From IMG/VR virus record IMGVR_UViG_3300021963_005880, positions 1-31,991 of that record: DNA of 31,991 nucleotides. One strand, given 5' to 3'. The notes under the pieces were generated by a model that made no database searches, was not told the DNA's origin, and was given only the letters and a program-made list of their open reading frames with translations. The DNA is from a virus. A program made the translations under genes and the position numbers. The stretch's first letter is position 1, and each line of letters starts with the position of its first letter. Below are positions 1,517 through 30,335 of the stretch, one piece after another.

Positions 1517-3145
1517 TTAGATAGAAGCCAAATCTTTAACATAAATCTTGCCATAAAATTCTGGGCGCACCATCTTCTTAGCGTAACGAGTCATAACACC
1601 ACGTCTTGGCGTGAAGTTAGATGGGTCGTACACTAATGGAGTCATAATCAATGGTACATATGGAGCATAAACCGCACCAGTCTCAAGGAAGTTACTTCCT
1701 TTGAATCCTAATAAGATTTCGTTAGAAGTCATATAAGGGTTCTTGTAAACTGTGTAACGAGATGCCAAAGAACCTACTTGAGATACACCAGCTGCGAAAG
1801 ATGTAGCATCTTTATCCGCGTTAACTGAGAAACCAGGAATTGATTCTAAGATAGTACAAACATCTGGAGATGCAACGATGAAGTTAGCACCACCACGAAG
1901 AGTTAATTGGTGAATCTTGTTAGAAACTTTGTTCAATTTAACACCTAATGTTTGGAACCATGTATTTTTTTGGTAAGCTAATGAATTGTTACCAGCAGAC
2001 CAAGTACCGTTTGCAGAGTTAAACTCTTCACCGATTGTTGCTGACCAATATTCAGTTGTTAACGCGTTAGACTTTAACATATCTAAGATTTCTAAATCAA
2101 TCTCTAAAGAGATGTATTCAGATAACATAGAAGTTAATTCAGCTTCAGCATCGATTGAATGGTATGCATTCAAATCTTGTGCCAATTCTGGTGTCCACAC
2201 TGCTTTCAACTTACGAGTCTTAGCAACAATTGCCTCAGAACGTAATTCTAAGTCAACTTCTGGAATACCTAAATCAGTTGCTGGTTCAGTTGGGTTACCA
2301 TCTTCGAAATCACCACGAGTTGTAGAAGTTGGAGCCAATGAATATTTAACTGTTACATTGTTTGCAGTTGCACCAGCAGCAGTACCGCTATAGTTAGCAT
2401 AGAATACTACGTTTGAACCTGATACTTTAGTATTTGCAGGGTAGAATGCATCTAATGCAGAAAAACCTGAAGATGAGATATGGAATGAACGTGCTGCGTC
2501 AAAATCTGCTGCAGTTGAAACGTTTGATTTTGCAATAGTTACTCTTTTCAAAGTACCTGCTGCTACTGATGATGATAAAGCTGAATCATATCCAACTTCT
2601 TGCCAGTTTGCTGAAGCAGTTACAGCATTAGCTGCTACTACTGAAATTGATTGGTCATTAATTGTGTAAGAATATCTTCCGTCACCATAAAGACCATTTA
2701 CAGCTGTTTTAGTTCTACCAAAATCAGAATCAAATGTTGAAGTACCTGCTCCACCAAATAATGATTGACCATTAAATTTAGTAGCACCTGCTACTGCAGT
2801 ACCATATTTGAAATCTAGATAGAATATAAGACCTGAAGGTAAGTTCATTGGTTGAACTGAAACGAATTCTTTCGCTGCAATTTCACCAAAGATTCTTCTT
2901 ACTAATGGTAAAGCTACGCCAGACCATTCTTCAGAACCTGCTGAAGTACCAGTTGCGGTAGCTTCATCCAATAATTGTTTCGCTTGGTTCTCTAATAGAA
3001 CTGCGATTTGAGATTGCTCTCTTTCTTTTAAACCTTCTAAAAGACCAGTTGCTTCCCATTTGCTTTTCAATTGACGTGTTTCAGCCAACATTACCGCTTG
3101 TGGGTTTCTGCCTTCCATAAGTTTAGATAAATTAAAATTTGCCAT
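1517..3145 (-). CDS. 23: Major capsid protein, T4 gp23-like
   Basis: This 542-residue protein (T4 gp23 is 521) forms the hexamers of the phage head. The conserved gp23 core is clear: LPLVRRIFGEI near residue 80, VQPMNLPSGLIFYLDFKYG near 97-115, TRKLKAVWTPELAQDLNAYH with IDAEAELTSMLSEYISLEID near 310-350, and a C-terminal MVRPEFYGKIYVKDL. A Ser/Thr/Ala-rich stretch at about residues 150-285 looks like a surface insertion domain. In T4 the prohead protease removes 65 N-terminal residues after a hydrophobic-x-Glu site. Here L59-D60-E61 followed by Ala is the equivalent candidate. The start is fixed by a strong Shine-Dalgarno, AAAGGAGA. The gene follows the scaffold by 32 bases and ends at an intrinsic terminator. 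Confidence 0.96.
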   Translation of the reverse strand: MANFNLSKLMEGRNPQAVMLAETRQLKSKWEATGLLEGLKEREQSQIAVLLENQAKQLLDEATATGTSAGSEEWSGVALPLVRRIFGEIAAKEFVSVQPMNLPSGLIFYLDFKYGTAVAGATKFNGQSLFGGAGTSTFDSDFGRTKTAVNGLYGDGRYSYTINDQSISVVAANAVTASANWQEVGYDSALSSSVAAGTLKRVTIAKSNVSTAADFDAARSFHISSSGFSALDAFYPANTKVSGSNVVFYANYSGTAAGATANNVTVKYSLAPTSTTRGDFEDGNPTEPATDLGIPEVDLELRSEAIVAKTRKLKAVWTPELAQDLNAYHSIDAEAELTSMLSEYISLEIDLEILDMLKSNALTTEYWSATIGEEFNSANGTWSAGNNSLAYQKNTWFQTLGVKLNKVSNKIHQLTLRGGANFIVASPDVCTILESIPGFSVNADKDATSFAAGVSQVGSLASRYTVYKNPYMTSNEILLGFKGSNFLETGAVYAPYVPLIMTPLVYDPSNFTPRRGVMTRYAKKMVRPEFYGKIYVKDLASI

Positions 3146-4851: not shown

Positions 4852-5925
4852 TTATTTGCTTAAAAGGAACAATGCTTCTTCAGCTTCTTGTTGATTTTTA
4901 ATCTTTGGGTCTTTATACATATCTACTTTATATCCTCTTAACGCATTTGATAAGAATATCATATACTTAGGATGTCCTAATTTTTCTTCTAACGTAGAAA
5001 GTGAATCATAGAACGATTGCTCGTTTCCTTTGTTCATTTTTTCTGCTGCTTTGAATTCTTCTTTATGTTTGTCAATATATGATGCAGTTGAATCTTTATA
5101 TCCATGTGCTGCTTCCTTTACTTTACCACATTCAACACAATTAGTTTTAGATTCTTCCAATGGCCATTGTGTTAACCACTTCAACCAATCTTTAGTATTC
5201 CAATCGTTTCTTTCTCTTGCCCCTACTTTGTAGTATTTTGTAAATACATCTCTTAATTCCGCTTTGTTATTAGCAAAACCGGGTATCTTAGATGCCACAT
5301 TTATAAATTCATTTGCACTAGCGTAATGTTCCATTGAGTTAGATAACATATCTACTAATGCCAACATTGCTTTATCATTACCTATCGCTTCGTTTACTGA
5401 TTCATTCTTTGGAACACAATTAGGAACTTGAGCACCACCTTTACCTGGTTTCATTCCTATCATCTCATATCCTTTCCAACATGGGTCTTTCTCCCCACCT
5501 TGTAATTTACCATCTTCTCTCAATCCCAAACGTTCTTTCATTTGCTCTTCAGTAATTTCACCAATTTTATAGTAACGAGATAGGATATGACCCATATCTT
5601 CGTATAATCCATGTAATCTTTGGTCTAAGTTCTTTGCTTCTATTGCAACTTGGTCAAATGATTTACCTAATTTGGTTAATTCATTCATATTACGTTTAAC
5701 AGTATGTGCATCAAACCAATCATCTGCTTCGTTTACCGCCAATTCTCTAGCTGCATCGGTAATACCACCCAAAGTTTCTGCTATCTCAGTAATGTCTGAT
5801 TTTCTATCCATCATTTCTTGATACTTGTTGTATGTAGAAACGATTTCTAAGAAATGTTTTTTTACTTCGTTGGAAAATCTTTTTGGTTCTTCACCTTCTT
5901 TAACTATCTTTGATAAACGTATCAT
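4852..5925 (-). CDS. Head-region modular protein with DPCWKGY motif
   Basis: This 357-residue protein is of unknown function. The N-terminus MIRLSKIVKE/GEE ends in a hydrophobic-x-Glu pattern like a T4 capsid-targeting leader. A helical domain follows (about 20-135). Next is a short module with DPCWKGYEMIGMKPGKGG and VPNCVPK (147-173), a cassette I recall from head-region proteins of marine T4-like phages. The linker NESVNEA (174-180) then separates a second helical domain, which has a C-x2-C pair at 263/266. The ESVNE linker recurs in neighbouring proteins and is a candidate gp21 cleavage site. The start is supported by AGGAGAT nine bases upstream, formed from the TAG stop of the previous gene. 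It is likely a prohead core or internal protein. Confidence 0.7.
   Translation of the reverse strand: MIRLSKIVKEGEEPKRFSNEVKKHFLEIVSTYNKYQEMMDRKSDITEIAETLGGITDAARELAVNEADDWFDAHTVKRNMNELTKLGKSFDQVAIEAKNLDQRLHGLYEDMGHILSRYYKIGEITEEQMKERLGLREDGKLQGGEKDPCWKGYEMIGMKPGKGGAQVPNCVPKNESVNEAIGNDKAMLALVDMLSNSMEHYASANEFINVASKIPGFANNKAELRDVFTKYYKVGARERNDWNTKDWLKWLTQWPLEESKTNCVECGKVKEAAHGYKDSTASYIDKHKEEFKAAEKMNKGNEQSFYDSLSTLEEKLGHPKYMIFLSNALRGYKVDMYKDPKIKNQQEAEEALFLLSK
5389..5403 (-). repeat. Dispersed linker repeat encoding ESVNE (357-aa protein)
   Basis: Coding sequence GAATCAGTAAACGAA is identical to 9102-9116 in a different gene, and one variant step from 10100-10114 and 10385-10399. It encodes the junction E-S-V-N-E between two modules of the 357-aa protein. 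Confidence 0.6.
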
Positions 5926-5935
5926 TTATTATCTC

Positions 5936-7432
5936 CTATTTTACTAATTTTGCTAATTTTATAGATTCATTCTTCATATATGGTTTATTATCAAATACTG
6001 ATTGAATTAAATCTGCTTCTTTATGAAATCCATTCATTCTCAATGTAAATGCTATACCATCTGCTGCATCGACTCCGTCCCATCCTGATGCTTGTGATAC
6101 ATCCGTACCATAATCATCAATCTCACCAGTTCCGTTCATATAAACCGAACCATCTGCAGAATTCTTACGAATATCATCCATTTTCTCTTTATACTTAGGG
6201 TCTTTGATTGATGGATATTCAGGTTTCTTTGCGAATTCAGGTTTTCCTTCAATTGCTGCTACTAATTCTCTTGCTTCACTATGAAAATTTGAATCAGTTA
6301 GTGCAGAAACTGCTGCTTGAAACATTGCTTCTTTATATTTTTCATTACCCAATTTTTGTGGAGTAATTCCTGATTTCTCAGCTAATTTCTTAGCATCTTT
6401 ATTTACTGATGGATTACCTGGTCTTTTCTTTTTAGGTTCTGATGTTGGTGTATCCGCTTTAGGCCCTTCTTGATTAGCATCTGCCTTTTTAGCAGCAACT
6501 CCTTGGTCTTCAGCAAATTTATTACACATAGGAATTGCATCTTTGATATCCATATCAATTACAATTACTTTCATATTTGCAGGTTTACCTGATGCAATTG
6601 CTGCTGATGTTACTGCTGCCCATCTATGATGACCATCAATTACATATCCATCTCTACTTACATAAATTGGTGCCGTAATACCAGGATGATTTGGGTCTTT
6701 TTCTAAAGCTTTGGACATTCCTGCTACTTTTGAACCCACTAATTCTGATTGTGTAGCTTTTAATCTATCTGATGGTATTTCGGTTTCTACTGTTTTTATT
6801 TTACCGTCCTTTAACATTTGCTGAAACATTGGTTCAGTGTCCACTTCACCCTTTGCATCTTTAGGTAATTTGTCGGCAGGTGAACCGGGAGTTGGTTTTC
6901 CTTTAAATTGTGGCATTTCTTCACGAGGAATACCAGCGTTACCAGCACAATATAAGTTTGTTCCAGCTACAGTTATTTTACATAAATTATAGTTAGGAGC
7001 TTCTTCACCTTTAGCCTTTGCATCACTAGCTATTTTATCTAACTCATCAATTTTCATAGAAATTTCTCTCTTATCACTATCTGATATTTTATTTATATCG
7101 GATGGTGCATTAAAAGTTTTTTTATCTGCCTTAGGCATTATATCTTTAATCTTAGTAGATTGTATTTTTGGGGTATCAAATTCTGTTGATGATTTATCAC
7201 CACTTTTATCTGATTTAGCAGATGTATTTTTTGCTGGTTTGTCAAAAATATTTACTGTTGGAGTTTTTGTATCAGGTTTATCTGATTTTTTGTCTTCTGG
7301 ATTAGTATGTGTTCCAGCTTTAATTGCATCAGCTTTACTGGCTTTTGACCTAAATATTGATGTTTTACCTGTCTTTTTATTTACAGCGGTAAAAGTTTCT
7401 GCTTCAATAAGTAAATTTTTTAATTTAATCAT
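5936..7432 (-). CDS. ParB/sulfiredoxin-fold domain protein, head region
   Basis: This 498-residue modular protein opens with MIKLKNLLIE/A, the clearest capsid-targeting-like leader in the window (compare the T4 internal-protein leader, which also ends hydrophobic-x-Glu before Ala). Next comes AVNKKTGKTSIFRSKASKAD and a Lys/Ser/Thr/Asp-rich linker. A ParB/Srx-like domain follows at about 215-300, with the signature VIDGHHRWAAV (DGHHR 266-270). This fold binds nucleotides or acts as nuclease or kinase in relatives, but the activity here is unknown. A Lys/Pro-rich linker and a C-terminal helical module (about 340-485) end in NESIKLAKLVK. The gene stops with TAG, 10 bases before the next ATG. A TAGGAA about 12 bases before the ATG is a modest Shine-Dalgarno. 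Confidence 0.72.
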   Translation of the reverse strand: MIKLKNLLIEAETFTAVNKKTGKTSIFRSKASKADAIKAGTHTNPEDKKSDKPDTKTPTVNIFDKPAKNTSAKSDKSGDKSSTEFDTPKIQSTKIKDIMPKADKKTFNAPSDINKISDSDKREISMKIDELDKIASDAKAKGEEAPNYNLCKITVAGTNLYCAGNAGIPREEMPQFKGKPTPGSPADKLPKDAKGEVDTEPMFQQMLKDGKIKTVETEIPSDRLKATQSELVGSKVAGMSKALEKDPNHPGITAPIYVSRDGYVIDGHHRWAAVTSAAIASGKPANMKVIVIDMDIKDAIPMCNKFAEDQGVAAKKADANQEGPKADTPTSEPKKKRPGNPSVNKDAKKLAEKSGITPQKLGNEKYKEAMFQAAVSALTDSNFHSEARELVAAIEGKPEFAKKPEYPSIKDPKYKEKMDDIRKNSADGSVYMNGTGEIDDYGTDVSQASGWDGVDAADGIAFTLRMNGFHKEADLIQSVFDNKPYMKNESIKLAKLVK

Positions 7433-7902: not shown

Positions 7903-8502
7903 TTATGCTAATTCAGTAATGATTTCTCTCATAAAGTCTTGTGCCTTACAATACTCACCACAAACTATAGCTTGTTCTTTTAATTGTCGATTTACTGATT
8001 CGTTCATCGTAACCGGTGTCATAAATGCACCATGTGTAGATGGGTTAGAAACAAAATCCCAACCAATCAGTTCAAAATCATCACCCACTTTTACTTTACC
8101 TTCGCCAATATTAACTACCGAACCCATACCACGAGAAGAGATACCCAATAGGATACCTGCTCTTAATAATTCTTTTAAGATGTTACCTGATGGAGTTGGT
8201 AAAATTTCTACTGTCCCACAAAGGTCATCGCCTTCCCAATGAATTTCTTTGACATTATGAGAAACGTTCTTTAAGTTGATAATACCAGAATCTGGATGGT
8301 CTAATTCCCCTAATGCACGTCTTTCTTTAATAAGAACTTCGTATTTCTTTGCTTCACGCATTAGAATATCTTTAGGGTATATACGACCATTTTGGTTTTC
8401 TGCAACCGCTCTTTGAAGAATTCCCTTAACTAAGGTTCTACCACTTGAATCTTCATTCAATTTTCCTTCAAATAATGTCGTTTCTATTAATAAATTTTTC
8501 AT
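7903..8502 (-). CDS. 21: Prohead maturation protease, T4 gp21-like
   Basis: This 199-residue serine protease cleaves scaffold, capsid and internal proteins during head maturation (T4 gp21, 212 residues, herpes-protease-like fold). The candidate catalytic residues are His69 in ALGELDHP and Ser122 or Ser123 in GISSRGMG. WDFVSNPS (Asp149) follows in the usual place. I chose ATG at 8502 over an in-frame GTG at 8514. The ATG overlaps the TAA of the upstream 58-aa ORF (TAATG), and GGGGAG sits five bases before it. The N-terminus (LLIE, LFE, LNE) and a C-terminal NESVNRQLKE carry hydrophobic-x-Glu sites, consistent with self-processing. Confidence 0.92.
   Translation of the reverse strand: MKNLLIETTLFEGKLNEDSSGRTLVKGILQRAVAENQNGRIYPKDILMREAKKYEVLIKERRALGELDHPDSGIINLKNVSHNVKEIHWEGDDLCGTVEILPTPSGNILKELLRAGILLGISSRGMGSVVNIGEGKVKVGDDFELIGWDFVSNPSTHGAFMTPVTMNESVNRQLKEQAIVCGEYCKAQDFMREIITELA
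7990..8004 (-). repeat. Dispersed linker repeat near gp21 C-terminus
   Basis: Coding sequence AACGAATCAGTAAAT encodes N-E-S-V-N near the gp21 C-terminus. It shares GAATCAGTAAA with the linkers at 5389 and 9102, but the final Glu codon has become CGA (Arg). Confidence 0.5.
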
Positions 8503-8678
8503 TATGCTCCCCACGTTTTTCTCTTTTTAAAGAGGTCAAAAAATATTGCAGATACTTCTCTACGAATGATATCACGAATAAGTTTTTCATCCTCATTTGT
8601 GATTTCTTCTTTGACGATACCCCATTTTACTTTGGTTATCTCTTCGTTAATAATATCTAACAATCGTTTTTTTGTCAT
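8502..8678 (-). CDS. Small basic helical protein, 58 aa, before gp21
   Basis: A short frame of 58 residues, MTKKRLLDIINEEITKVKWG to a Trp-Gly-Ala end, fills the gap between the 238-aa gene and gp21. It predicts as amphipathic helices with Lys/Arg and Glu. Its TAA shares a base with the gp21 ATG (TAATG), so the two are probably translationally coupled. T4 has small head proteins gp67 and gp68 in the same place between gp20 and gp21. The position is equivalent, but I see no convincing sequence match. No Shine-Dalgarno is visible before its ATG. Confidence 0.65.
   Translation of the reverse strand: MTKKRLLDIINEEITKVKWGIVKEEITNEDEKLIRDIIRREVSAIFFDLFKKRKTWGA
8507..8512 (-). promoter_or_regulatory. 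Shine-Dalgarno deciding the gp21 start
   Basis: GGGGAG lies five bases before ATG 8502, inside the end of the 58-aa ORF. It falls downstream of the alternative GTG at 8514, so it supports the ATG as the true start. Confidence 0.6.
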
Positions 8679-11520: not shown

Positions 11521-13251
11521 TTAATTTTCCGTATCATCGATAATATTAGTTTCATCTAACATATCTTTAGTTTCGTGTAAATATTTCTTTTTTGATGAAA
11601 TCCCATTGATGTAATTCATTGCTTTTGTTTCAGATGTTCTACTTCTCTTTGAAGTTCTCTCATCATCACCTAATGGGTCTCTTCCATAAGGATGCTTGTC
11701 TTTACCATAAGTATTACCTTCGCGAGGTCTACCACCTTTATCCTTCAATTCTGTTTTAAGATTTTCCAAACTTTCTTCAACATCAGTTGGTTTTGGAGGG
11801 TTTGCAGGGTCATTACCATCATTTTCTATTGAATTGTAACGGAATACATCCTTTAAATCCTCAACCACTTTACCTCTTTGTTCGGTTTGTTCCGTTTCTG
11901 ATAATTTAAATATATTTTCATATATCCAATCCTTAGATAACATCTTCAATGCAGCCATATCAGTTGCTAAACGGATTTTTTCACTCCATAGGTTTACTTT
12001 CTCTTGTTCGTAGATTGTAGATGGGTTAACTAATCCAATTTCAAAGTTAGTCATTTCAGAATCTTGTATACCATTACCATATAAGTGGATAACTGCTATT
12101 TTAGATAATTCTGAGGTAACTGTTCTTTGGATTCTTTCGATTGTTCTTGCAAAACGAACATCTTCTGCTGCTAGGGTTGCTTTACCATTTACATTTTCAT
12201 CATATCCCAAATATGCTTTAGGAATTTTTAATGCAGCAAATAATTTAGCTTTTAGGTAATCAATATCTTCAATTGAAGCATATTCTAAACCTGCAAGGTT
12301 ATCAATCGATGTACCACTATCACCACCTCTTACCGGTAGATAAAAATCTTCCGTAAGGTTTTGCATGTTGTACTTTAAATTATAATCACCACTTGTCTTA
12401 TCTAAGAATGGAACTTTTTTCATCTTATTGATAATTTTTTGCATGTAGTTATCAACTTCAGTTGGTGGAATATTACCAATATCAATTTTGAATACCCTTT
12501 TTTCAGGTGCTCTCATAATACGATGGATTAACATCGCATCTTCCATTAAAGATAATTGTTTCCACAACCTTCTGCCATTTTCAATCATTGATTTACCATA
12601 AGGTAACCAGTTGGTATCAGATAATAAACGGAAATGTGCCATTTCAAAGTTATCATACTCTACTTTACCAATCGGGTCTTCTTGCACTTTGAATTTAACA
12701 AGAGAAGCATTAGTTGGGTCAAACCCTTCTAATCTTTCGGTATTATATTGTGAGTGGGGAGTAACGTTTACTATACCTTTACCTTCAGCAATTTCAAGTC
12801 CTAAAAAGAAATCACCATATTTACACATATTACGAACCCACGGCCATAAAGTGAATTCAATATTAAGAATATCATAAAAAAGGTTTTCTAATAATTCTTG
12901 AACACGCGGATTGTCTGAACGTATTGTTATGATATCACCGAATTCGTTTTTAAGAGTAGATTCATCAGCGTAAATATCTAATGCAGATGCTATAATTGGG
13001 TCTTGGTCCATCGCATCAAAATCTCTAAATACTTCTCTACGAACTTGAGCGTATGCCATTGATTGTGCACCTCCCGCTTGTTCATAAAAAGATTTTTGTA
13101 TTTTTGAGTATCTATCTTTTAATGAAGATAGGTTTGTTTGTTGCCTTTCATCCGCATCAAAAACTTTTCGTTTTCCACTGGCATCGACAGTAACAATTGC
13201 CTTTGTTGAGAAAAGTTTTTTTAACCGATTGAAAAATGTAGTATCTGCCAT
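11521..13251 (-). CDS. 20: Portal vertex protein, T4 gp20-like
   Basis: This 576-residue protein (T4 gp20 is 524) forms the dodecameric portal through which DNA is packaged and the tail attached. T4-like portal features are clear. The N-terminal region includes KSFYEQAGGAQSMAYAQVRR, then DPIIASALDIYADEST and NEFGDIITIRSDNPRVQELL. The core includes PWVRNMCKYGDFFLGLEI, APEKRVFKIDIGNIPPTEVD, and KIPKAYLGYDENVNGKATLA with the SDVRFARTI-type helix (here AEDVRFARTIERIQ). The C-terminal tail, about residues 480-576, is polar and rich in Lys, Asp and Asn, and is probably flexible. The gene follows the terminase after 73 bases. It has a CATATTTATA box upstream but no Shine-Dalgarno. Confidence 0.95.
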   Translation of the reverse strand: MADTTFFNRLKKLFSTKAIVTVDASGKRKVFDADERQQTNLSSLKDRYSKIQKSFYEQAGGAQSMAYAQVRREVFRDFDAMDQDPIIASALDIYADESTLKNEFGDIITIRSDNPRVQELLENLFYDILNIEFTLWPWVRNMCKYGDFFLGLEIAEGKGIVNVTPHSQYNTERLEGFDPTNASLVKFKVQEDPIGKVEYDNFEMAHFRLLSDTNWLPYGKSMIENGRRLWKQLSLMEDAMLIHRIMRAPEKRVFKIDIGNIPPTEVDNYMQKIINKMKKVPFLDKTSGDYNLKYNMQNLTEDFYLPVRGGDSGTSIDNLAGLEYASIEDIDYLKAKLFAALKIPKAYLGYDENVNGKATLAAEDVRFARTIERIQRTVTSELSKIAVIHLYGNGIQDSEMTNFEIGLVNPSTIYEQEKVNLWSEKIRLATDMAALKMLSKDWIYENIFKLSETEQTEQRGKVVEDLKDVFRYNSIENDGNDPANPPKPTDVEESLENLKTELKDKGGRPREGNTYGKDKHPYGRDPLGDDERTSKRSRTSETKAMNYINGISSKKKYLHETKDMLDETNIIDDTEN

Positions 13252-13324: not shown

Positions 13325-14908
13325 TTATTTAATCAACCAAGTCAAATCTTCGTCTTGATTACCCACTTTCATTGACCACGGATTATCATCCATTGAACTA
13401 CCACCATAGAAGCCAGATTCTTGTACTTGTTGTTGAATTCCACCTAATGATTTGATAGTTAAATCAATTCCTTCTTGTCTTAATCTGAGTGCAGTATCTC
13501 TCACCCATAGAGCAATTGATAACGCCATCACTAAGTCATCGTTGTATCCTCTCATTGCTTCCGCACGATTATTGTTCCATATAAAGGTAAAAAGCTCCTC
13601 TATCAACCTATTAGAACGTATGGTGATAGATTTCTCTCTGAAATAATCATCCAACTTTGAAATAATTAGAGGTCTTGTTTTAGAGGTTGTTGAAAATCCT
13701 GCAACCATACCCCTTTCTTCTGCTCTAAACTTATTATGCATCTGATGTTCAACATCCACATACTTTAAATCCTTACTCATATAGAATAAATTTTTATATC
13801 CTCTATCAATTACCTGTTGGATAACTGCCCAACCAATATTTGCGTTCTCTATTACTAAAAGTGCTTCGTTATAATCGGTTGCTAAGGAAACTAAGAAATT
13901 TCCAAAATCTTTTGTATCTAATTTTCCTTTGTATTCTGCTACTTGTACCGAATTAACAATATCAATTACTTGTGCGGCGGAGTAATCCGTAGAATCTCCA
14001 CGTGCAACGTCCGCAACAACCATATATGATTTTTGATAATCGGGATATTCCCATTTCCAAAGATTTCCATCAAAGCCAGTTTTTTCTAATGGTTCTTGTA
14101 CAAAAGTTTCCCTATAAAACATTAGAAGTTGTGGGTCTATGACACTATCACCTGATGATACGAAATCACAATCACATTCCTGTGCTGCACCCTTTACTCC
14201 TAAAAGTCTTTGTTGTTCATCTCTCCAAATTTGGTCTCTTTCTGGATGTACCGTCCAATGTAAACGAATTGTATTGAATCCATTAGTTCCGTCTTCTGCA
14301 CTAACCCATGTTCTATGAAAAAAATTACCCACACCATTAGGAGTAGAAAGAATAATTGCGTTACCACCCGTTGATAGAGTAGATTGTGCAGATACCCAAA
14401 TATCTTCAATATTATCAATGAATGCTGCCTCATCAAATACTAAAAGAGATAGGGCTTCAGACCGACCAGCATCTGATGCTGCAGAAGTTGCTTTAACTTG
14501 CGAACCATTTGAGTATCTAAGGGATAATTTATTATCTTCGACTGTTGTTTGTTTTAACCAACTAGGTAAATATTGATTCATTACCCTTACTTTGGTTACT
14601 AAGTTTTTTGCAACCTCTTGTTTCGTTGCAATTACTAATACGTTAAAGTCCTGATTAAATAACATCTTCCATAACGCAAATCCTGCAGTTAAGGTTGATA
14701 TACCCGTCTGGCGGGATTTCAGAATGATGTTATATCGATTATCTTTGAATTGGGCTAGAGTATTTTCTTGAAATGGGTATAAATGAAAAGGTATCTTACC
14801 CCTAACAGGGTGTTGAATCATGCAATACTTCTTCATAAAGTATACGGGGTCACCTGCACACTTTTGGTATTCTAATTTTATTATATCTTTTAAAGAAGTT
14901 CCTGCCAT
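13325..14908 (-). CDS. 17: Large terminase subunit, T4 gp17-like
   Basis: This 527-residue DNA-packaging motor combines an ATPase and a nuclease (T4 gp17 is 610). The Walker A-like motif is KSRQTGIS (64-71) and Walker B is SLLVFDEAAF with Asp159 and Glu160. The coupling motif is ILSTPNG (186-192). In the C-terminal RNase H-like nuclease, acidic residues appear as VVADVARGDS (Asp300), LLVIENAN (Glu354) and GYNDDLVMAL (Asp457/Asp458). All expected catalytic residues look present. It starts 12 bases after the zinc-cluster gene, with no Shine-Dalgarno. It uses the motor with the portal encoded next. In T4, gp18 and gp19 (tail sheath and tube) lie between 17 and 20, and they are absent here. Confidence 0.96.
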   Translation of the reverse strand: MAGTSLKDIIKLEYQKCAGDPVYFMKKYCMIQHPVRGKIPFHLYPFQENTLAQFKDNRYNIILKSRQTGISTLTAGFALWKMLFNQDFNVLVIATKQEVAKNLVTKVRVMNQYLPSWLKQTTVEDNKLSLRYSNGSQVKATSAASDAGRSEALSLLVFDEAAFIDNIEDIWVSAQSTLSTGGNAIILSTPNGVGNFFHRTWVSAEDGTNGFNTIRLHWTVHPERDQIWRDEQQRLLGVKGAAQECDCDFVSSGDSVIDPQLLMFYRETFVQEPLEKTGFDGNLWKWEYPDYQKSYMVVADVARGDSTDYSAAQVIDIVNSVQVAEYKGKLDTKDFGNFLVSLATDYNEALLVIENANIGWAVIQQVIDRGYKNLFYMSKDLKYVDVEHQMHNKFRAEERGMVAGFSTTSKTRPLIISKLDDYFREKSITIRSNRLIEELFTFIWNNNRAEAMRGYNDDLVMALSIALWVRDTALRLRQEGIDLTIKSLGGIQQQVQESGFYGGSSMDDNPWSMKVGNQDEDLTWLIK

Positions 14909-15633: not shown

Positions 15634-18600
15634 TTATGCGTAAAAAATACCCAATAATTGATTCAGAGAGGCGAATGCTCCTGTTAATTTGAATGTCTGT
15701 CCGTTATATACAAATACAATTCCTTCGATTGGTACGATTCTTTTAGCACCACCAATTGCATTTAATCTTTTAAGTTCTAATTTTAGTTTATCTATCTTCT
15801 TAGGGTCTCCACTTGCCTGAACATCCTTTATCGTTTGTTCTAAACGTTTCTTCATATCCCTTAAAGCGGAATCTGGATTAACTGTTAGTACCGATGCGGT
15901 GAATTCCAATACATCTGCACCAACTCCTAAGAAAATATCTTCAAATTTCATTAAGTTATCTTTTGAAATACCTTTATGGTCTTCCTTATCTATCTTAGTA
16001 GCCCATGCAAGGGTCTTTTCATCCTTAATTGAATTCTTATCAATACGGAATCCCTTTTCGTTAAACGCCCATCTCTTAACTAACCCCATTTTAGTGGCGT
16101 TATCTAATGTAGTCGGTGATTTCTTATCCACAAAGTTTTCCCACCATGCTTGATGGTAATCAGCAACACCTGCAGTATCTCCTAATCCAAATTCTTTTTG
16201 TAATTTAGATATCATAGCAAGATACTTACCTTTCTTAGATGATAGGTCTTGTGATTTTGGTAACTTTAATACCGGTGGCCCTTGTAGTGTATACTTTGAT
16301 TGAACATCGGCGTTTACTTGTTTAAGCATTCCACCCAATACTCTACCTGCTTCTGCTGATTCCCCTATCGCATCACCATTCTCATCGTATTCCATTGTTC
16401 CGTGAAATACTAATAGTGGTTGACCATAAGGAATAACGTTGACTGAGGTAGGATATATCACCTCTATGTTCATAAAACATGAACCATTCTTAAATACTTT
16501 ATCTTTTTGTGCTTGGGATAATGATTTTATAGCATTAGATAGGTCTTTCATCGCGAAATTATAGGCATCGGTTAGTTCACCTCTACCGGCAAACTTATCT
16601 GCTACTCCGTTGATATCTAACGCCCCAGCACCTTTATTTTTCAAATGTGATTTGTTTCTTGCTGCTACTAATCTACCATCTATCCAACTTATAGCCAATG
16701 CCTGACCATCAGTTTTCTCTCTAGCAAATTCTAAGTTACCATCTAATGCACGATTTACGATATCTTTAAGTTGACCAAAGGTTAAATTGATTTCAGTATC
16801 AAATGGATGATTCATATGTCCATATGCACCACCTTCCATTATTAGGGATTCGGTTGTAAATACAGGAGTAGATGATTTGAAATCAGCTTTTCTCATTACC
16901 GTCTTAGCAATCAATCTATCAGCCACTTTAATAAATGCTATATTGATATTCGATACTCTATCTTTAACTACAAACTCTTTATATTGTTTTAGGAACTCTA
17001 AAAATTTCTTTTTGTTTCTAGCCAATCTTTTGAATAACCCCGTTAGTTCTGCAGGGGATATTTCTTTACCATTTCGCGGGTCGTTTAACCTTTGAAAGAA
17101 ATGGTCAGTTTCCCTTCCTAAATCAACATCAGTTGGATTCATCTGTGAATCAGCGTATTTTTCAACCGCATCCATATCAGTCTTAGCCATTTCAACTTTA
17201 ACTTTTTCTCTTAATACTGCACTTTGAGATGAATAAAAGTATCTATCAATTAATTTATTTTCTAATTTTTTAAATCCAATATTTTTATGACAATTATGGA
17301 ATGGGTTTTGTTGTTTCAACAAAAGTATTTGATGCGTTATCTCATGTAATATTGCCCTTTCTATATCAATAACTTTACTCAAATCAAAGGTAATGTATTC
17401 TGGTATAAATGTTTTAGTATCGTATGTAGTTGCTGCACCTGCACGGCCAACTGAACCAAACTTAACTGCGATGGGTTTTATCTTTAAATCTTTACAAATT
17501 TCTTTGTAGTAATTTATAACACTTTCTTTTTTAACTTCGGTTAATGGTTCGTTAGGTATATCATCAACTTGTACCGCTATTTCCTCTAAATCATCTTGGC
17601 CTGAGTCTTTTACTTTGAAATTAGCTTTTTTATTATCGTATTTTCTCGGATGTGTTCGGGCCCAATCTGCGTAATTATCAACGGTTCCATCATAGTAATA
17701 ATTTTCTTTAACACTATCACTCCCTTCATCTTTCTTTTTATTTCGTTGTCTACGCAAATCAACGTGCGAATTACCAACAGGAGCAATTACTGTGTATCCA
17801 TTATCTTCAGCTTCTTTGATTTTTCTATCTAATTCTCTTTGACGAAACCCGTTATATGCTTCCTGTCCTTTTGTTATTTCAGTTTCACCATATCCATCAT
17901 CATCTCTAAAATTTAATTGATATATATCTTCTTTTTGTTCATCAGTTAAATTATCAAAATCAGTATTGTCATCTATTGAATCTACTCCGCCCTTTTTAGC
18001 TTGGTCAATTAACCATGCCTTACCCTCATCATCTAAATAATCTTCAGCAAGTAAATCATCTCCTTGTCCAACCATATTTGACCAGATTGAAGCTTTTGCT
18101 TTTGATTTACTACCACCTAAAGATTGTGCAACTTCATCAAATACTGGGGAATCTTCATTAGATATATCTGCATTTTCATCCCAACTACTTTCTTCTGCAT
18201 TGTCAAAATGTCCTTTTACTGCATTTCTAAATTCATTTTGTTCTCCACCAAATTCAATATTACCATTCTTATCTTTACTCATGCCACCCTCGCCTACAAA
18301 CATTACTTTTGTATCTTTAGGTAAAGTTTTTATTTGTTCTATTGTTTCTTTATTACTTTTCTTTCTTTTTCCATGTTCAACTCCAATAATCAATGAACCA
18401 TTTGGTGTTACATCAATATCTAATTCTTCACCATTTTTTGTTTTTCTATTCTTTAATTTATTTGCTACTTCAGCCGTATCAGATGATGATTTTGTAGGTT
18501 CTTGTTTTGGTTCTTCTTTAGGTTGTTTAACACTTTTATCATGTTTAAACATATCTGCACCTTGTACTGGTTTACCAGGTGTTTTTGGCTCTTGTCCATT

Positions 18601-20022
18601 TTCACCATCCGATTTTATTGGACTATATTTTCCACTATCATCTTTTTTAAATAGGGGTGCACCCTCTACATCTTTTTTACTTTTTTCTTTGTATTTACCA
18701 TACCCAACGTGGACATATTTATCATCTTCACCATCTGATTCAAATAGTGAATCTAATAAATCAGAATAATCAGATATTAATTCTGAAATAGAATCTTTTT
18801 GTTTTGTTTTCTTTTTCAATCTCTTTTCTGCCTTTTCAATTTTTTCAACTTCGTGAGTGACATCAACATCATCAAACCCAAGCGGATATGTAGTTGGTTT
18901 ATTCAAATTTCTAGCGTTGTTTTTTGTTTTAATTTTAAAGGTTATTTGGTTTTCATCATCAGATGCATATATTGCATCTGCTTTTGGAAAATCAGTTTGG
19001 GTATATCCTCCTCTAACAAACCAATCATCGCCACTATTAACCCCATCATCACCACCTAATACTCTTGTCTTGCCTTTTGGTAGATATCCACCATCGGGTT
19101 GTGCATCATCACCGCCGGAAACAGTTGCTGCCTCTTTAAAAATATTTACCTTTGGTAGAATTCTAAATGTAGCCACTTTTTTACCATTTATAGTTGGCAT
19201 TCCATGTTCATCTTTACCAATTGTCTTAACTACTGTTTTTTTATTTTTAAATTTACCCATTAATATGGTATCACCAATATTAACATCTAATTTAATTTCT
19301 TCATTTACCTCATCTTCATCATCCAACTTTTTACGCATCTTTTTTACATCTTCAGGTTTCGGTGCACCATTAATTGTTCCGTTTGGAAGTGATAGTCCGA
19401 TTCCCGTTCCACCTGGCATTCCTTCACTCATAGTTTTAAGTTTAAGAGTAATCAGTTTAAATATTTTTTCATCAAACTTTGGGTATGCTTTTAAGAATCC
19501 AGCCTTTTGTTGTTCTTCATCGCCCTTACTTAACCAATTTCGTACATTAGTACCTGATATTGGGTTTGATTGTGATGGTGAAACATACACATAACCTTTT
19601 TCCTTATATCCTTGTTCTATCTTACCTTTATATTTCTCAAAATACTTTCCACCCAATCTCATCTCATCTTTTTCACCAACAACACTTATATAACCAGTTG
19701 TAGTTTCATCAAAGTTTTTTAAGATTTCAGTTGGTGCATAAGGATTCTTAATCTCAACTATTTTGTTTGATGGAATACCAAACATTTTAGTCATGATTAT
19801 TTTCTTTTCCTTAAAATTAAATGGAGATTGCCTATTATCGGTTTTATTAGATGTTCCAATAAACACTTTATCCTTACCAAATTTCTTACAAAGATTTTGA
19901 TAAGTTGCGTAGTGGCCTTTATGGAAAGGTTGGAATCTACCTGAATACACCACAACAAAGTTGTGTAATTCGGTGTCTTCTAATAAAATTTGATTGATAA
20001 GATATTGACTTAGTTCATTCAT
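15634..20022 (-). CDS. 1462-aa multidomain protein: nucleotidyltransferase, metallopeptidase, ligase
   Basis: Domains in order. Leader MNELSQYLINQILLE/D. A cytidylyltransferase/NMNAT-like domain at about 20-195, with YSGRFQPFHKGH (HKGH 34-37) and ISGTNVRNWL. A short KFKNKKTVVKTIGKDEHGMP module (about 245-290). Disordered linkers (about 295-525). A domain with VGEGG (576-580) and GNSHVDLRRQ (750-759), loosely like TraB/ChaN proteins. A zinc metallopeptidase-like domain with HEITH (893-897). A C-terminal domain (about 1060-1462) like ATP-dependent RNA/DNA ligases, with KTDG (1103-1106), NIEVIYP, EGIVF (1433-1437) and FKLTG. Possible gp21-type sites include EVNE/E at 241, FKE/A at 297 and IME/G at 1063. 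It is probably a packaged and processed polyprotein. This is inference from its leader, linkers and position before the head genes. Confidence 0.8.
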   Translation of the reverse strand: MNELSQYLINQILLEDTELHNFVVVYSGRFQPFHKGHYATYQNLCKKFGKDKVFIGTSNKTDNRQSPFNFKEKKIIMTKMFGIPSNKIVEIKNPYAPTEILKNFDETTTGYISVVGEKDEMRLGGKYFEKYKGKIEQGYKEKGYVYVSPSQSNPISGTNVRNWLSKGDEEQQKAGFLKAYPKFDEKIFKLITLKLKTMSEGMPGGTGIGLSLPNGTINGAPKPEDVKKMRKKLDDEDEVNEEIKLDVNIGDTILMGKFKNKKTVVKTIGKDEHGMPTINGKKVATFRILPKVNIFKEAATVSGGDDAQPDGGYLPKGKTRVLGGDDGVNSGDDWFVRGGYTQTDFPKADAIYASDDENQITFKIKTKNNARNLNKPTTYPLGFDDVDVTHEVEKIEKAEKRLKKKTKQKDSISELISDYSDLLDSLFESDGEDDKYVHVGYGKYKEKSKKDVEGAPLFKKDDSGKYSPIKSDGENGQEPKTPGKPVQGADMFKHDKSVKQPKEEPKQEPTKSSSDTAEVANKLKNRKTKNGEELDIDVTPNGSLIIGVEHGKRKKSNKETIEQIKTLPKDTKVMFVGEGGMSKDKNGNIEFGGEQNEFRNAVKGHFDNAEESSWDENADISNEDSPVFDEVAQSLGGSKSKAKASIWSNMVGQGDDLLAEDYLDDEGKAWLIDQAKKGGVDSIDDNTDFDNLTDEQKEDIYQLNFRDDDGYGETEITKGQEAYNGFRQRELDRKIKEAEDNGYTVIAPVGNSHVDLRRQRNKKKDEGSDSVKENYYYDGTVDNYADWARTHPRKYDNKKANFKVKDSGQDDLEEIAVQVDDIPNEPLTEVKKESVINYYKEICKDLKIKPIAVKFGSVGRAGAATTYDTKTFIPEYITFDLSKVIDIERAILHEITHQILLLKQQNPFHNCHKNIGFKKLENKLIDRYFYSSQSAVLREKVKVEMAKTDMDAVEKYADSQMNPTDVDLGRETDHFFQRLNDPRNGKEISPAELTGLFKRLARNKKKFLEFLKQYKEFVVKDRVSNINIAFIKVADRLIAKTVMRKADFKSSTPVFTTESLIMEGGAYGHMNHPFDTEINLTFGQLKDIVNRALDGNLEFAREKTDGQALAISWIDGRLVAARNKSHLKNKGAGALDINGVADKFAGRGELTDAYNFAMKDLSNAIKSLSQAQKDKVFKNGSCFMNIEVIYPTSVNVIPYGQPLLVFHGTMEYDENGDAIGESAEAGRVLGGMLKQVNADVQSKYTLQGPPVLKLPKSQDLSSKKGKYLAMISKLQKEFGLGDTAGVADYHQAWWENFVDKKSPTTLDNATKMGLVKRWAFNEKGFRIDKNSIKDEKTLAWATKIDKEDHKGISKDNLMKFEDIFLGVGADVLEFTASVLTVNPDSALRDMKKRLEQTIKDVQASGDPKKIDKLKLELKRLNAIGGAKRIVPIEGIVFVYNGQTFKLTGAFASLNQLLGIFYA

Positions 20023-20066: not shown

Positions 20067-20186
20067 TTAGTGATTTTTATAAACAAATGGGTCTCTTTTA
20101 CGGAGTTCTTCTAAACGTTTTTTATATTGTTTTTTTAATTTACGTTGTTTGAACCAATCTGTTATTTTTTTAATAAGCTTTTTCAT
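20067..20186 (-). CDS. Small basic protein, 39 aa, ending RDPFVYKNH
   Basis: A 39-residue frame, MKKLIKKITDWFKQRKLKKQ to LRKRDPFVYKNH, overlaps the end of the 470-aa glycosyltransferase-like gene by 17 bases. It is a single very basic amphipathic helix followed by RDPFVY. I recall tiny proteins with a C-terminal (K/R)RDPF(I/V)Y motif in other T4-like phages, which supports it as a real gene. Function is unknown. The helix could bind nucleic acid or membrane. No Shine-Dalgarno is present. Confidence 0.55.
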   Translation of the reverse strand: MKKLIKKITDWFKQRKLKKQYKKRLEELRKRDPFVYKNH

Positions 20187-21582
20187 TAATAGTTTTTTTT
20201 AAGTTAATTATAAATTCATTTTCGATTTCATCTTTATTATTTGCGTATTCAAACAATAAATTTCTATTATAAATAAGTATTTCAAAAATTGATTTATACC
20301 ACTCATTTAATTCTTCAAAAGACAGTGAATTTAATCTTATAATTTCAGCATATATAGATTCCATACGTTCTGCATCATCTTTTATATTATCATACTCTTC
20401 ATTTATAAATGGAGAAAATGTTTTAAATCCTAATTTTTTTAATTCAACAAGTGCACCCGGTTTGTTAACCATTATAAATGGTTGTAGATGACCAATCGGT
20501 TTCCATGTCTTTTCGGAAAGATATAATCCTGTTTCATAAAAATTAGTTTCTGATAAAATATGAATATATGAATTTAAATAAGGTTCTTTATTTTCAAAAT
20601 TAAATCCCCAAACTGATTCTATATCTTCATAATCAATTGTTTGTTTTTTTAGTTTAATTATATTTTGAAATTCTTTATATGCACTTAGTGCTAAATTACT
20701 AGTGTGTAAATGGTGTGAAAAAAATGAAAGATTATTTTCTCTTTCAAACATATTAATGTCAAATGAAACTAAATTTTCTTTTATAAAATCAATACCTAAT
20801 AACGAAAGTAATGTAATTCGTTGTGGTCTTAATCGTCTATTCATAAATAAAAATTTATGTTTTCTAATATTAGAAAAATCAATATCACTTTCTTTTACAA
20901 TAGTACTCGTATTATTAACGTGTTCCCAAAAATTATCCTTTACTCCATTAAAAATTTGTTGCATTTCTAATGATTTCATTCTTAATGACCATCCCCAATA
21001 AATTACTTTTATTTTATCAGTAATGTTATTTTCTAAACAAATCTTATTATGTAATTCTTCAATATCAACACTTGAAATTGTGAATATAACTTTATTAGCA
21101 GGGATTTCATATTTTTTAAATAATTCGTATAAATACACTATTAAATGCTCTTCAAATACACCTTCAGTTGAAAAATTAATATGTAAATAAAAATTGGGTG
21201 TATTTTTTATTTCCGTTAATGCATGAGTTGATATAAAATCTATAAAATTCCATTCTGAAAATTGAGTTTGTTTTCCTAAAAATTGTGAAAAACTTCCAAA
21301 TGGTTCTACTAAATATACAAAACTTTTATTACTTTTTATTCTAATATCATAATACTCATTAAAGGATAATTTAGTATATAAGTTTGTATTTAAATTTAAA
21401 TTTGCATTGTAAACGGGTGGTTGTAAATAATTTTTAAAAAAATGTTCGCTAACTGAACTATTTACTTCCCCACCTTCTTCAAAAAATTTGTAAGAATAAA
21501 AATAATTAAACGCGTTTGGAATCCAACCAGATGGTCCAAAGAAATCATAAACTGCGTGAAAATTATCAATCGTATTATGCAT
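20170..21582 (-). CDS. Glycosyltransferase-like protein, paralog 1 (470 aa)
   Basis: This 470-residue protein is one of three paralogs in the operon. The shared signature is an N-R-x-x-x-x-x-R segment (MNRRLRPQR 247-255), then SETNFYETGLYLSEKTWKPI (SEKTWKP 356-362), LQPFIMVNKPGAL, LGFKTFS (384-389) and a Glu-Tyr-Asp segment. The S/T-E-K block followed by a conserved hydrophobic-Pro strand resembles the nucleotide-sugar-binding part of GT10 (fucosyltransferase) and related enzymes, so transfer of a sugar to a surface glycan or virion protein is the best guess. The family match is by eye, so the sugar is unknown. It overlaps the E1-beta-like gene by eight bases and has no Shine-Dalgarno. The N-terminal 230 residues are specific to this copy. 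Confidence 0.6.
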   Translation of the reverse strand: MHNTIDNFHAVYDFFGPSGWIPNAFNYFYSYKFFEEGGEVNSSVSEHFFKNYLQPPVYNANLNLNTNLYTKLSFNEYYDIRIKSNKSFVYLVEPFGSFSQFLGKQTQFSEWNFIDFISTHALTEIKNTPNFYLHINFSTEGVFEEHLIVYLYELFKKYEIPANKVIFTISSVDIEELHNKICLENNITDKIKVIYWGWSLRMKSLEMQQIFNGVKDNFWEHVNNTSTIVKESDIDFSNIRKHKFLFMNRRLRPQRITLLSLLGIDFIKENLVSFDINMFERENNLSFFSHHLHTSNLALSAYKEFQNIIKLKKQTIDYEDIESVWGFNFENKEPYLNSYIHILSETNFYETGLYLSEKTWKPIGHLQPFIMVNKPGALVELKKLGFKTFSPFINEEYDNIKDDAERMESIYAEIIRLNSLSFEELNEWYKSIFEILIYNRNLLFEYANNKDEIENEFIINLKKTINEKAY

Positions 21583-22120
21583 AGTATAATTCAGGGTATT
21601 CTGCTAATACATGAATACCAATATTTTCGGTTGCGTATTTATATGATAATTCAACGTCTTGCCAAGTCTTTAAATCGTGAAATTCTATATTAGGACACAT
21701 TGATTTAAACTCATCTATATAATTTCCTTTATGTTGATGACCTGGGTCTAATGGTTTATCCGAGCCCTTACCTACTCTAATTAAAATATGAGGATTCCAT
21801 TGACCATTTGACATTTTCTTAATTTTATCTAAATGATTTACCAATTGATTTGATGCACAAATTAAAAAATCCCAGCGAGGATAAAATGTAACAACTTTAT
21901 GACCAGCCATAGCTAATCCTAAACTCATACCTAATTGAGTTTCTTCCATTACTGGTGTTTCTATCATTTTTTCTTTAGGTAATCCTTCAATTGTTTTTGA
22001 CATTGGATTTCCATAATAAACTATTTGTTGGCCAATAAATATAGTTGATTCATCTTGCATAATAGTTTTCATAGCAGTTGTCAATGCATCAACATATGGT
22101 GTAAATTGTGGTGTACTCAT
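21575..22120 (-). CDS. Thiamine-diphosphate enzyme, E1-beta-like (PYR domain)
   Basis: This 181-residue protein resembles the pyrimidine-binding domain of transketolase and 2-oxoacid dehydrogenase E1-beta subunits. ETPVMEETQLGMSLGLAMAG (54-73) contains the candidate Glu (59 or 60) that activates the cofactor ring. YPRWDFLICASNQLVNHLDK (80-99) matches the E1-beta F-x-D-F-x-x-x-A-x-D-Q pattern. It is about half the usual E1-beta length, with no C-terminal transketolase domain. The E1-alpha-like partner is encoded 4 kb upstream in the same operon (25983-26618). Together they could form a minimal carbon-transfer enzyme for an unusual sugar. That role is inferred from the neighbours. Confidence 0.75.
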   Translation of the reverse strand: MSTPQFTPYVDALTTAMKTIMQDESTIFIGQQIVYYGNPMSKTIEGLPKEKMIETPVMEETQLGMSLGLAMAGHKVVTFYPRWDFLICASNQLVNHLDKIKKMSNGQWNPHILIRVGKGSDKPLDPGHQHKGNYIDEFKSMCPNIEFHDLKTWQDVELSYKYATENIGIHVLAEYPELYYA

Positions 22121-22128
22121 TTTTTAAT

Positions 22129-22854
22129 TTAATTTGGTTGCCAATTATCTTTTTTTAATTTTTTAATTATTGATTCTGCGACACATTTATGTCCTTTTAG
22201 ATTAAGATGTATATCATTTTTTTGTAATCCTTGTGATACAAAATCAGATGCTATTGTTACATTGTATTCATCTCTATGTAGAAAGTATTCAAATGAATTT
22301 TTTGTATCACCATCTATTTCTATATCAACGTGTCTATCTTTAAAATATTTTTGATATAATGGATGATTTGGAAATTCTTCATACCAACTAAGTGTTACAA
22401 CTTTAACACCTAACAATTCCCATTTAATAATTTCTTTATTTACAATTTCAATTTGTTCTTCTATTGACATTACATCACCTGTTAATTTACCTTCTTTAGT
22501 ATAACGTTGATTTATAAAATCTCTATCATGTGATGTAAATTGATATATTATTAATCCAAATTTTGTTATCGGTAGATTAACTTTTTTTTGTAAATAGCCA
22601 TTTATATAATCTTTTATATTTCTCACATTCGAACCACCATTTCCACTATTAGCAATATCCCATGTTTTATATTCATTTGCTATAATTCGTAGAAATCTAT
22701 TTTCATCTTTAAACTTAATATGGTCGTCAGATAAGGTGTAATCAAATTGATGATATTCTTTTAAAGCTGGTAAATCTGGTAGATTACTATAAAAATATAA
22801 TCCTTCACCCCACATAAAAGAACAGCCGATACCTAATACACCTTTTGTATTCAT
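22129..22854 (-). CDS. SGNH-hydrolase-like protein, copy 1
   Basis: This 241-residue protein matches the SGNH/GDSL esterase pattern. GIGCSFMWGEG provides a candidate nucleophile Ser12. GNGGSN (71-76) gives the Gly/Asn oxyanion residues. DIHLNLKGHKCVAESI has Asp214 and His216 in the D-x-x-H position, one residue shorter than the classical spacing (D-x-H). Such enzymes remove or transfer acyl groups, often O-acetyl groups on glycans. The second copy at 26625-27371 is a paralog with the same start and end motifs. The ATG overlaps the stop of the preceding epimerase (TAATG), so the two are coupled. Confidence 0.72.
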   Translation of the reverse strand: MNTKGVLGIGCSFMWGEGLYFYSNLPDLPALKEYHQFDYTLSDDHIKFKDENRFLRIIANEYKTWDIANSGNGGSNVRNIKDYINGYLQKKVNLPITKFGLIIYQFTSHDRDFINQRYTKEGKLTGDVMSIEEQIEIVNKEIIKWELLGVKVVTLSWYEEFPNHPLYQKYFKDRHVDIEIDGDTKNSFEYFLHRDEYNVTIASDFVSQGLQKNDIHLNLKGHKCVAESIIKKLKKDNWQPN

Positions 22855-23846: not shown

Positions 23847-23849
23847 AAC

Positions 23850-26618: not shown

Positions 26619-26624
26619 AAATTT

Positions 26625-30333: not shown

Positions 30334-30335
30334 AC

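What the first reader, a model, noticed from the sequence alone, without database searches (positions are those of the whole stretch)
15634..20022. 1462-aa fusion of NMNAT-like, metallopeptidase and ligase-like domains
A single gene combines HKGH/SGTNVR nucleotidyltransferase, HEITH metallopeptidase and KTDG...EGIVF ligase-like chemistry, with disordered linkers and candidate gp21 sites. If packaged, it would deliver NAD- or nucleotide-modifying and nick- or RNA-repair enzymes at injection, countering NAD-depleting or RNA-cleaving defences. I know of no described role for this combination.
Basis: partly seen in the sequence, partly recalled or inferred. Interest (0 to 1): 0.78.

Follow-up and report, generated by a model that had tools for sequence, protein, structure and literature searches.

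The report
Phage head-packaged polyprotein with swappable enzymes
This gene of a T4-like phage encodes one long chain of several enzymes joined by sites that the phage's own head protease probably cuts, and related phages swap different enzymes in and out at those sites, which suggests an exchangeable payload that is loaded into the virus head and injected into the host.

Summary
The 1462-aa ORF (15634-20022, minus strand) and the quoted motifs are real. It is not a lone curiosity: the NMNAT-like N-terminal and ligase-like C-terminal (LIG) domains recur in T4-like environmental phages (over 590 LIG matches in IMG/VR). LIG is C-terminal in all 180 ORFs checked; TerL lies downstream in 108 of 108 loci with room. 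Between the two ends the content changes: HEITH zincin, a TIKI/ChaN-like domain, CCA-adding enzyme, ParB, acetyltransferase, P-loop kinase, DUF5661 and others. Cassette edges coincide with the T4 head-protease motif [LIVM]xE (2-3 times chance; control motifs about 1). Several domains (ligase, kinase, others) occur either as separate genes behind a short leader, MIKLxxLLxE, or as internal cassettes, with an [LIV]xE site kept just before them. That leader occurs 64 times against 0.28 expected, on 12 unrelated protein groups. LIG keeps ligase-superfamily catalytic residues; its model matches mainly RNA ligases, weakly. Best reading: a capsid-targeted cargo polyprotein cut by the gp21-like protease and injected, in effect a shuffled string of T4 internal proteins. 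Packaging, cleavage and enzyme activities are inferred, not shown. RNA-end repair or NAD maintenance is plausible but unproven.

The parts
15634..20022 (-). whole ORF, 1462-aa cargo polyprotein
   Evidence: relatives
19978..20022 (-). N-terminal leader MNELSQYLINQILLE, candidate capsid-targeting sequence ending in LLE
   Evidence: M(N/S)xLSxxLxxxIL.E conserved at the start of most full-length relatives
19423..19977 (-). NMNAT/cytidylyltransferase-like (HIGH) domain, HKGH and ISGTNVR
   Evidence: PF01467, phrog_395, PDB 1f9a E=5.5e-6
19423..19431 (-). candidate head-protease site MSE|G; left edge of a swapped cassette
   Evidence: L013 has a different cassette from exactly here
19300..19308 (-). 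candidate site VNE|E at a cassette edge (VSE|D in L013)
19147..19296 (-). short module GDTILMGKFKNKK...GMPTINGKK, found in different positions in relatives
   Evidence: moved to just before LIG in L028
18466..18726 (-). linker module YVHVGYGKYKEK... plus low-complexity linker
17719..18465 (-). TIKI/ChaN-like domain: GVEHG (18370-18384), VGEGG (18283-18297), GNSHV (17761-17775)
   Evidence: invariant G..H, GEGG, G..H; best Pfam hits of diverged homologs are ChaN 0.006 and TraB 0.015, sub-threshold; model pLDDT 80-94 over most of the domain but no PDB match
17704..17712 (-). candidate site VKE|N (IKE|N/D in relatives with an extra upstream cassette)
17536..17544 (-). candidate site LTE|V (ITE|V in L007, L094), preceded by a remnant of the DUF5661 cassette
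17188..17538 (-). zincin-like domain, HEITH at 17332-17346
   Evidence: homologs as separate genes L128, L131
16855..17187 (-). unknown domain 'HFFQRLNDPRNGKEIS', phrog_14518
   Evidence: 52% identical in Flavobacterium phage immuto gene 190
16834..16842 (-). candidate site IME|GG before the ligase-like domain
   Evidence: [LIVM]xE precedes GGAYGHM in the fused relatives listed (one has an ambiguous residue), after unrelated upstream sequences
15637..16833 (-). ligase-like (covalent nucleotidyltransferase) domain LIG: KTDG, EVIYP, FHGT, EGIVF, FKLTG
   Evidence: model pLDDT 87; top PDB matches are RNA ligases, E 0.008 upwards
7903..8514 (-). prohead protease, S77 (T4 gp21 type)
   Evidence: PF03420 E=1.3e-26
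1517..3145 (-). major capsid protein; QLLDE|A lies where the T4 gp23 cut is expected
   Evidence: phrog_138 E=4.6e-73; sequence; T4 comparison from memory
5936..7432 (-). second leader-bearing cargo protein (MIKLKNLLIE|A, ParB-like); homologs are 1400-2400 aa polyproteins that carry the TIKI-like domain
4852..5925 (-). leader-bearing protein MIRLSKIVKE|G
13325..14908 (-). large terminase; conserved downstream neighbour
   Evidence: 108 of 108 loci with room

Best explanation
The ORF is a late-gene cargo polyprotein. Its short N-terminal leader (capsid-targeting type, ending in [LI]xE) brings the whole chain into the prohead core. The phage's gp21-like S77 protease then cuts after the glutamate of [L/I/V/M]xE in the linkers, releasing separate proteins inside the head: NMNAT-like enzyme, TIKI/ChaN-like protein, zincin, HFF protein and ligase-like enzyme. 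These are injected with the DNA to protect or condition the first minutes of infection. New cargo is gained or lost by recombination at the linkers, because any domain flanked by [LI]xE becomes a functional cassette. Shown here by sequence: constant ends, cassettes, junction-motif coincidence, leader family, stand-alone/fused equivalence, synteny. Inferred: packaging, cleavage, injection, enzyme activities.
For: [LIVM]xE lies within 3 aa of 30.8% of cassette edges against 10.3% by chance, while [LIVMF]x(D, K, Q, N, S or G) stay at 0.4-1.1 times. With the LIG junction and the NMNAT-like domain left out and near-duplicates removed it is still 145 against 73 expected, 0 of 300 random placements, controls 0.86-1.13. 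LIG as a separate gene starts MIRLxK(I/L)LNEVLLKE|GGAYGHM; fused, it follows unrelated cassettes but keeps the site; L062, L064 and L068 keep the old start and leader inside the fusion. The P-loop kinase occurs as a gene, MIKLFDILNE|GVYDPG..., and as an internal cassette, (INE, VNE, VTE, IKE or IRE)|GVxDPG.... Other cassettes also occur as leader genes. The leader is found 64 times against 0.28 in shuffles, on 12 unrelated body groups. S77 protease, portal, TerL and MCP are in the window. T4 gp21 cuts after L/I-x-E, and the first 10 residues of IPIII suffice for packaging (PMC9026906). NMNAT-like proteins are in cyanophage virions (PMC10665884; PMC9602691).
Against: No proteomics or assay for this family. 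Linkers are E-rich, so part of the enrichment is compositional ([hydrophilic]xE is 1.28 times). LIG and the NMNAT-like domain also carry occasional [LIVM]xE (0.54 and 0.74 per 100 aa against 1.38 in the interior), and the window protein as a whole has no excess of the motif (15 against 15.3). Its own leader differs somewhat from MIKLxxLLxE. Junction motifs could partly reflect recombination at short shared linker DNA.
Confidence: 0.8

Rival explanations
1. A polyvalent protein in the sense of Iyer et al. 2017: injected as one multidomain chain and processed mainly by its own zincin, rather than by the prohead protease.
For: Multidomain, conflict-type domains, a zincin in the chain; processing by zincins was proposed for that class (PMC5512222).
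Against: The zincin is missing from most relatives with the same [LI]xE-delimited layout, and no LPD (polyvalent-associated) Pfam domain was found in the members scanned. Stand-alone leader genes need no zincin.
Confidence: 0.1
2. An ordinary cytoplasmic auxiliary enzyme fusion for NAD salvage or RNA repair, expressed after infection and never packaged.
For: Phage NMNAT/NadR enzymes are usually read as NAD salvage (PMC9503650). In relatives a P-loop kinase and CCA-adding enzyme join the chain, as in RNA repair.
Against: Fixed position beside TerL in 108 of 108 loci, the leader family shared with unrelated head-region proteins, and cassette turnover at protease motifs are not expected of a cytoplasmic enzyme.
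Confidence: 0.07
3. Within the packaged payload, NMNAT-like + ligase-like + (in relatives) P-loop kinase form an injected RNA-end repair set against anticodon nucleases and similar defences.
For: LIG keeps the ligase motifs and its model matches RNA ligases first. Kinase-NMNAT-like-LIG order in L156, L160, L176, L187. CCA-adding cassette in L042; NUDIX and an RNase T-type exonuclease in others.
Against: No activity shown. Fold matches are weak (best E 0.008, TM 0.2). Motif V is K-L-T rather than K-x-K. Many other cassettes have no link to RNA repair.
Confidence: 0.35
4. NMNAT-like and LIG work as a pair: LIG takes AMP from NAD+ and releases NMN, which the NMNAT-like domain turns back into NAD+, so that the injected pair is self-sufficient.
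For: The two are the only constant parts: both are in 99 of 111 complete LIG-containing ORFs.
Against: No NAD-binding Ia domain seen; nearest folds are ATP-dependent ligases; the two can sit in separate genes; first His of HxGH lost in about half of the N-terminal domains.
Confidence: 0.1

Closest known systems
T4 internal proteins IPI-III and Alt with capsid-targeting sequences, cut by gp21
   Same: Short N-terminal leader ending in [LI]xE, gp21-type protease in the same gene cluster, small non-homologous cargo proteins sharing a leader; Alt is cut at both ends (ITE-6, LTE-619; PMC5694885).
   Different: Here many domains are strung into one chain with internal sites, and the same domain alternates between a leader-bearing gene and an internal cassette; cargo is mostly enzymes.
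Polyvalent proteins (Iyer et al. 2017, PMC5512222)
   Same: Large multidomain, predicted virion-borne early effectors with zincins and varied enzymes.
   Different: None of the named LPD domains found; cassettes delimited by head-protease motifs; constant ends (NMNAT-like and ligase-like).
Giant-phage ejection proteins cut by phiKZ gp175 / SPN3US gp245
   Same: Head proteins processed after x-x-E by a gp21 homolog (PMC5694885, PMC9026906).
   Different: Those are single proteins with propeptides; no cassette polyprotein is described in the passages read.
Virion NMNAT/cytidylyltransferase of cyanophages (S-CREM2 ORF154, S-SCSM1 ORF91)
   Same: NMNAT-like protein found in virions (PMC10665884, PMC9602691).
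   Different: S-CREM2 ORF154 spans 861 bases (about 286 aa), too short for a NMNAT-like plus LIG fusion.
ATP-dependent RNA ligases (Rnl1, Rnl2, archaeal Rnl3)
   Same: Motifs I, III, IV and part of V; best fold matches.
   Different: About 200 aa of mostly helical sequence between motifs IIIa and IV; only one lysine in motif V; very short tail after motif V.

Membership tests
T4-type internal/ejected head proteins (CTS + gp21 processing) | Short N-terminal leader ending in L/I-x-E | tested here: met
   MNELSQYLINQILLE; conserved in relatives; MIKLxxLLxE family 64 observed against 0.28
T4-type internal/ejected head proteins (CTS + gp21 processing) | gp21-type S77 protease and head genes in the same cluster | tested here: met
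T4-type internal/ejected head proteins (CTS + gp21 processing) | Present in virion, cut, and injected | not testable with these tools
   needs proteomics and ejection assays
Polyvalent proteins | Two or more unrelated effector-type domains in one chain | tested here: met
Polyvalent proteins | Known polyvalent-protein-associated (LPD) domains | tested here: not met
   none in Pfam scans of 78 sequences, 38 + 40
NMNAT / HIGH nucleotidyltransferases | PF01467 match, HxGH and SxTxxR | tested here: met
   about half of relatives have GxHH instead
NMNAT / HIGH nucleotidyltransferases | NMN adenylylation | not testable with these tools
   assay needed
Covalent nucleotidyltransferase (RNA/DNA ligase) superfamily | Motif I KxDG, motif III E, motif IV EG | tested here: met
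   kept in 146-147 distinct rows
Covalent nucleotidyltransferase (RNA/DNA ligase) superfamily | Motif V KxK (definition from memory) | tested here: not met
   (F/Y)K(L/F)TG: first K invariant, second position is T
Covalent nucleotidyltransferase (RNA/DNA ligase) superfamily | Nucleotidyltransferase fold | tested here: inconclusive
   ranks 1-28 are RNA or DNA ligases but E >= 0.008 and TM about 0.2
Zincin metallopeptidase | HExxH plus third ligand | tested here: inconclusive
   HEITH kept in all 10 rows printed; a downstream E is conserved, the His residues are not; model low confidence
TIKI/ChaN/TraB superfamily | GxxH ... E ... GxxH and fold | tested here: inconclusive
   motifs invariant; sub-threshold Pfam; no PDB fold match

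The most novel reading that the evidence does not exclude
A large group of environmental T4-like phages uses a self-processing cargo polyprotein as a general loading dock: any protein domain flanked by head-protease sites can be inserted, packed, cut free and injected, so that the payload evolves by cassette exchange between this gene, a second polyprotein gene and stand-alone leader genes.
Probability: 0.65. Interest if true: 0.82.

Novelty: new variant of a known kind. Interest (0 to 1): 0.72.

Why it matters
It would turn the known but small set of T4 injected proteins into a readable, searchable class: leader plus [LI]xE boundaries predict which proteins a phage carries into the cell, including many of unknown function. 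It gives directly testable cut sites and points to two cultured relatives (Microcystis phage Mel-JY01, Flavobacterium immuto phages). If LIG and its partners are active, these phages would bring nucleotide- or RNA-repair enzymes ready-made, before any phage gene is expressed.

Tried and rejected
PDB sequence search with the LIG profile found no credible ligase (best hits ribosomal eS6 and P1 DarA at E 0.02-0.04), so the ligase claim rests on motifs and the fold match. PDB sequence search with the zincin found nothing. The TIKI+zincin+HFF model gave good confidence only for the TIKI part and no PDB match. A mixed fragment alignment (A5) misplaced fragments and was replaced by A6. The minus-strand ORF control for the leader is weak, so shuffles were used. 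One genome-contig scan gave only a phage-like contig in a Pelagibacteraceae MAG. Paper searches for the NMNAT-RNA ligase fusion in virions and for cassette polyproteins found nothing relevant; the library lacks most subscription papers. The idea that NMNAT + HEITH + ligase is a fixed trio was rejected: HEITH is absent from most relatives.
Full report
Observation. The ORF at 15634-20022 (minus strand) is real, 1462 aa, uninterrupted. The window is a 32-kb IMG/VR fragment of a T4-like phage head region: MCP (1517-3145), S77 prohead protease (7903-8514), portal (11521-13251), large terminase (13325-14908).

Domains. N-terminal domain: PF01467 above its gathering score, phage cytidyltransferase families, archaeal NMNAT 1f9a at E = 5.5e-6. 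C-terminal domain (LIG): no Pfam family; KxDG, E of the EVIYP strand, EG(I/L)VF and (F/Y)K(L/F)TG kept across 146-147 distinct rows; AlphaFold2 model pLDDT 87; Foldseek ranks 1-28 in the PDB are almost all RNA ligases, with one putative DNA ligase (archaeal, T4 Rnl1, T4 Rnl2, Naegleria, Aquifex), best E 0.008, probability 0.9, but TM only about 0.2. I read it as a distant covalent nucleotidyltransferase with a large, mostly helical insert between motifs IIIa and IV. The HEITH domain rests on its motif.

A variable middle between constant ends. LIG was C-terminal in all 180 ORFs with a complete 3' end, and 99 of 111 complete LIG ORFs also have the NMNAT-like domain. The smallest versions are only these two domains, as in Microcystis phage Mel-JY01. 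The middle differs from phage to phage and its order changes, for example HEITH-HFF and HFF-HEITH. Pfam finds DUF5661, HD, CCA-adding/poly(A) polymerase head, acetyltransferases, ParB, zeta-toxin-like P-loop kinase, NUDIX and an RNase T-type exonuclease in relatives.

Cassette edges are head-protease motifs. T4 gp21 cuts after L/I-x-E (PMC9026906). Edges between shared and unshared blocks lie within 3 aa of [LIVM]xE in 30.8% of cases against 10.3% for random positions; the same pattern ending in D, K, Q, N, S or G gives 0.4-1.1 times. After removing near-duplicates and leaving out the NMNAT-like domain and the LIG junction, 145 edges lie within 4 aa of the motif against 73 expected (0 of 300 random placements), controls 0.86-1.13; E-rich linkers alone give 1.28. 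The exact junctions between the window protein and near-identical relatives are MSE|G, V(N/S)E, (V/I)KE|N, (L/I)TE|V and IME|GG. The density of the motif alone is not raised in the window protein (15 against 15.3 in shuffles): placement is the signal.

The same cargo appears with a leader or with a site. LIG as its own gene starts MIRLxK(I/L)LNEVLLKE|GGAYGHM; in the fusions the [LIVM]xE|GGAYGHM is kept after quite different upstream sequences, and in L062, L064 and L068 the former start and leader are still inside the fusion. The P-loop kinase is either a gene, MIKLFDILNE|GVYDPG..., or an internal cassette..INE/VNE/VTE/IKE/IRE|GVxDPG. A third domain is a leader gene in L202 and a cassette in L013 and L028. 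A fourth is a leader gene in the cultured Flavobacterium phage immuto and a cassette in L069 (60% identity). The strict leader M(I/K)(K/R)(L/I)xx(L/I)(L/I/V/M)xE occurs at 64 ORF starts against 0.28 in shuffles, on 12 unrelated body groups. The window itself has two more leader genes (4852-5925, 5936-7432), and homologs of the second are 1400-2400-aa polyproteins that carry the same TIKI-like domain.

Position. TerL follows on the same strand in 108 of 108 loci with at least 4 kb downstream, median distance 1.4 kb, as expected of a late head gene.

Mechanism. Most likely the leader targets the chain to the prohead core, the S77 protease cuts it at the linker motifs, and the freed proteins are injected. 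In T4 the first 10 residues of IPIII suffice for packaging (PMC9026906), Alt is cut at both ends (PMC5694885), and the internal proteins Ip1-3 counter host restriction (PMC12373910). NMNAT-like proteins are already known in cyanophage virions (PMC10665884, PMC9602691). Packaging, cutting and injection are inferred here. What the payload does is less certain: ligase, kinase, CCA-adding and NUDIX cassettes point to RNA ends or NAD, but other cassettes do not.

Filing. It works like a string of T4 internal proteins. It overlaps with polyvalent proteins in concept, but none of their named LPD domains was found. LIG is superfamily-level only: motif V is not the full KxK and the fold match is weak.

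Noticed in passing
window 5936-7432 and homologs L093, L097, L102, L105, L110: A ParB-like, leader-bearing protein (MIKLKNLLIE|A) whose homologs in other phages are 1400-2400-aa polyproteins that share the TIKI-like domain: apparently a second cargo polyprotein.
   Followed up: partly
window 20170-31991: A run of genes upstream with nucleotide-sugar epimerase and weak transketolase-like matches, probably for sugar or surface modification.
   Followed up: no
L004 (Flavobacterium phage immuto) 1671-4394: 907-aa protein annotated NadR: apparent polymerase-beta-type nucleotidyltransferase start, an NMNAT-like domain and two HExxH motifs; a cultured multidomain relative beside the head genes.
   Followed up: partly
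L042 5663-11212: 1850-aa relative that carries a CCA-adding/poly(A) polymerase domain and a second zincin motif (HELVH) between the NMNAT-like and ligase-like ends.
   Followed up: partly
NMNAT-like domains of diverged relatives: About half have GxHH in place of HxGH while SGTxxR is kept; the substrate or activity may differ.
   Followed up: no
window 9404-10603 and 8688-9404: Head-region proteins of unknown function with repeated ES(I/V)NE motifs, probably multiply cut core proteins.
   Followed up: partly
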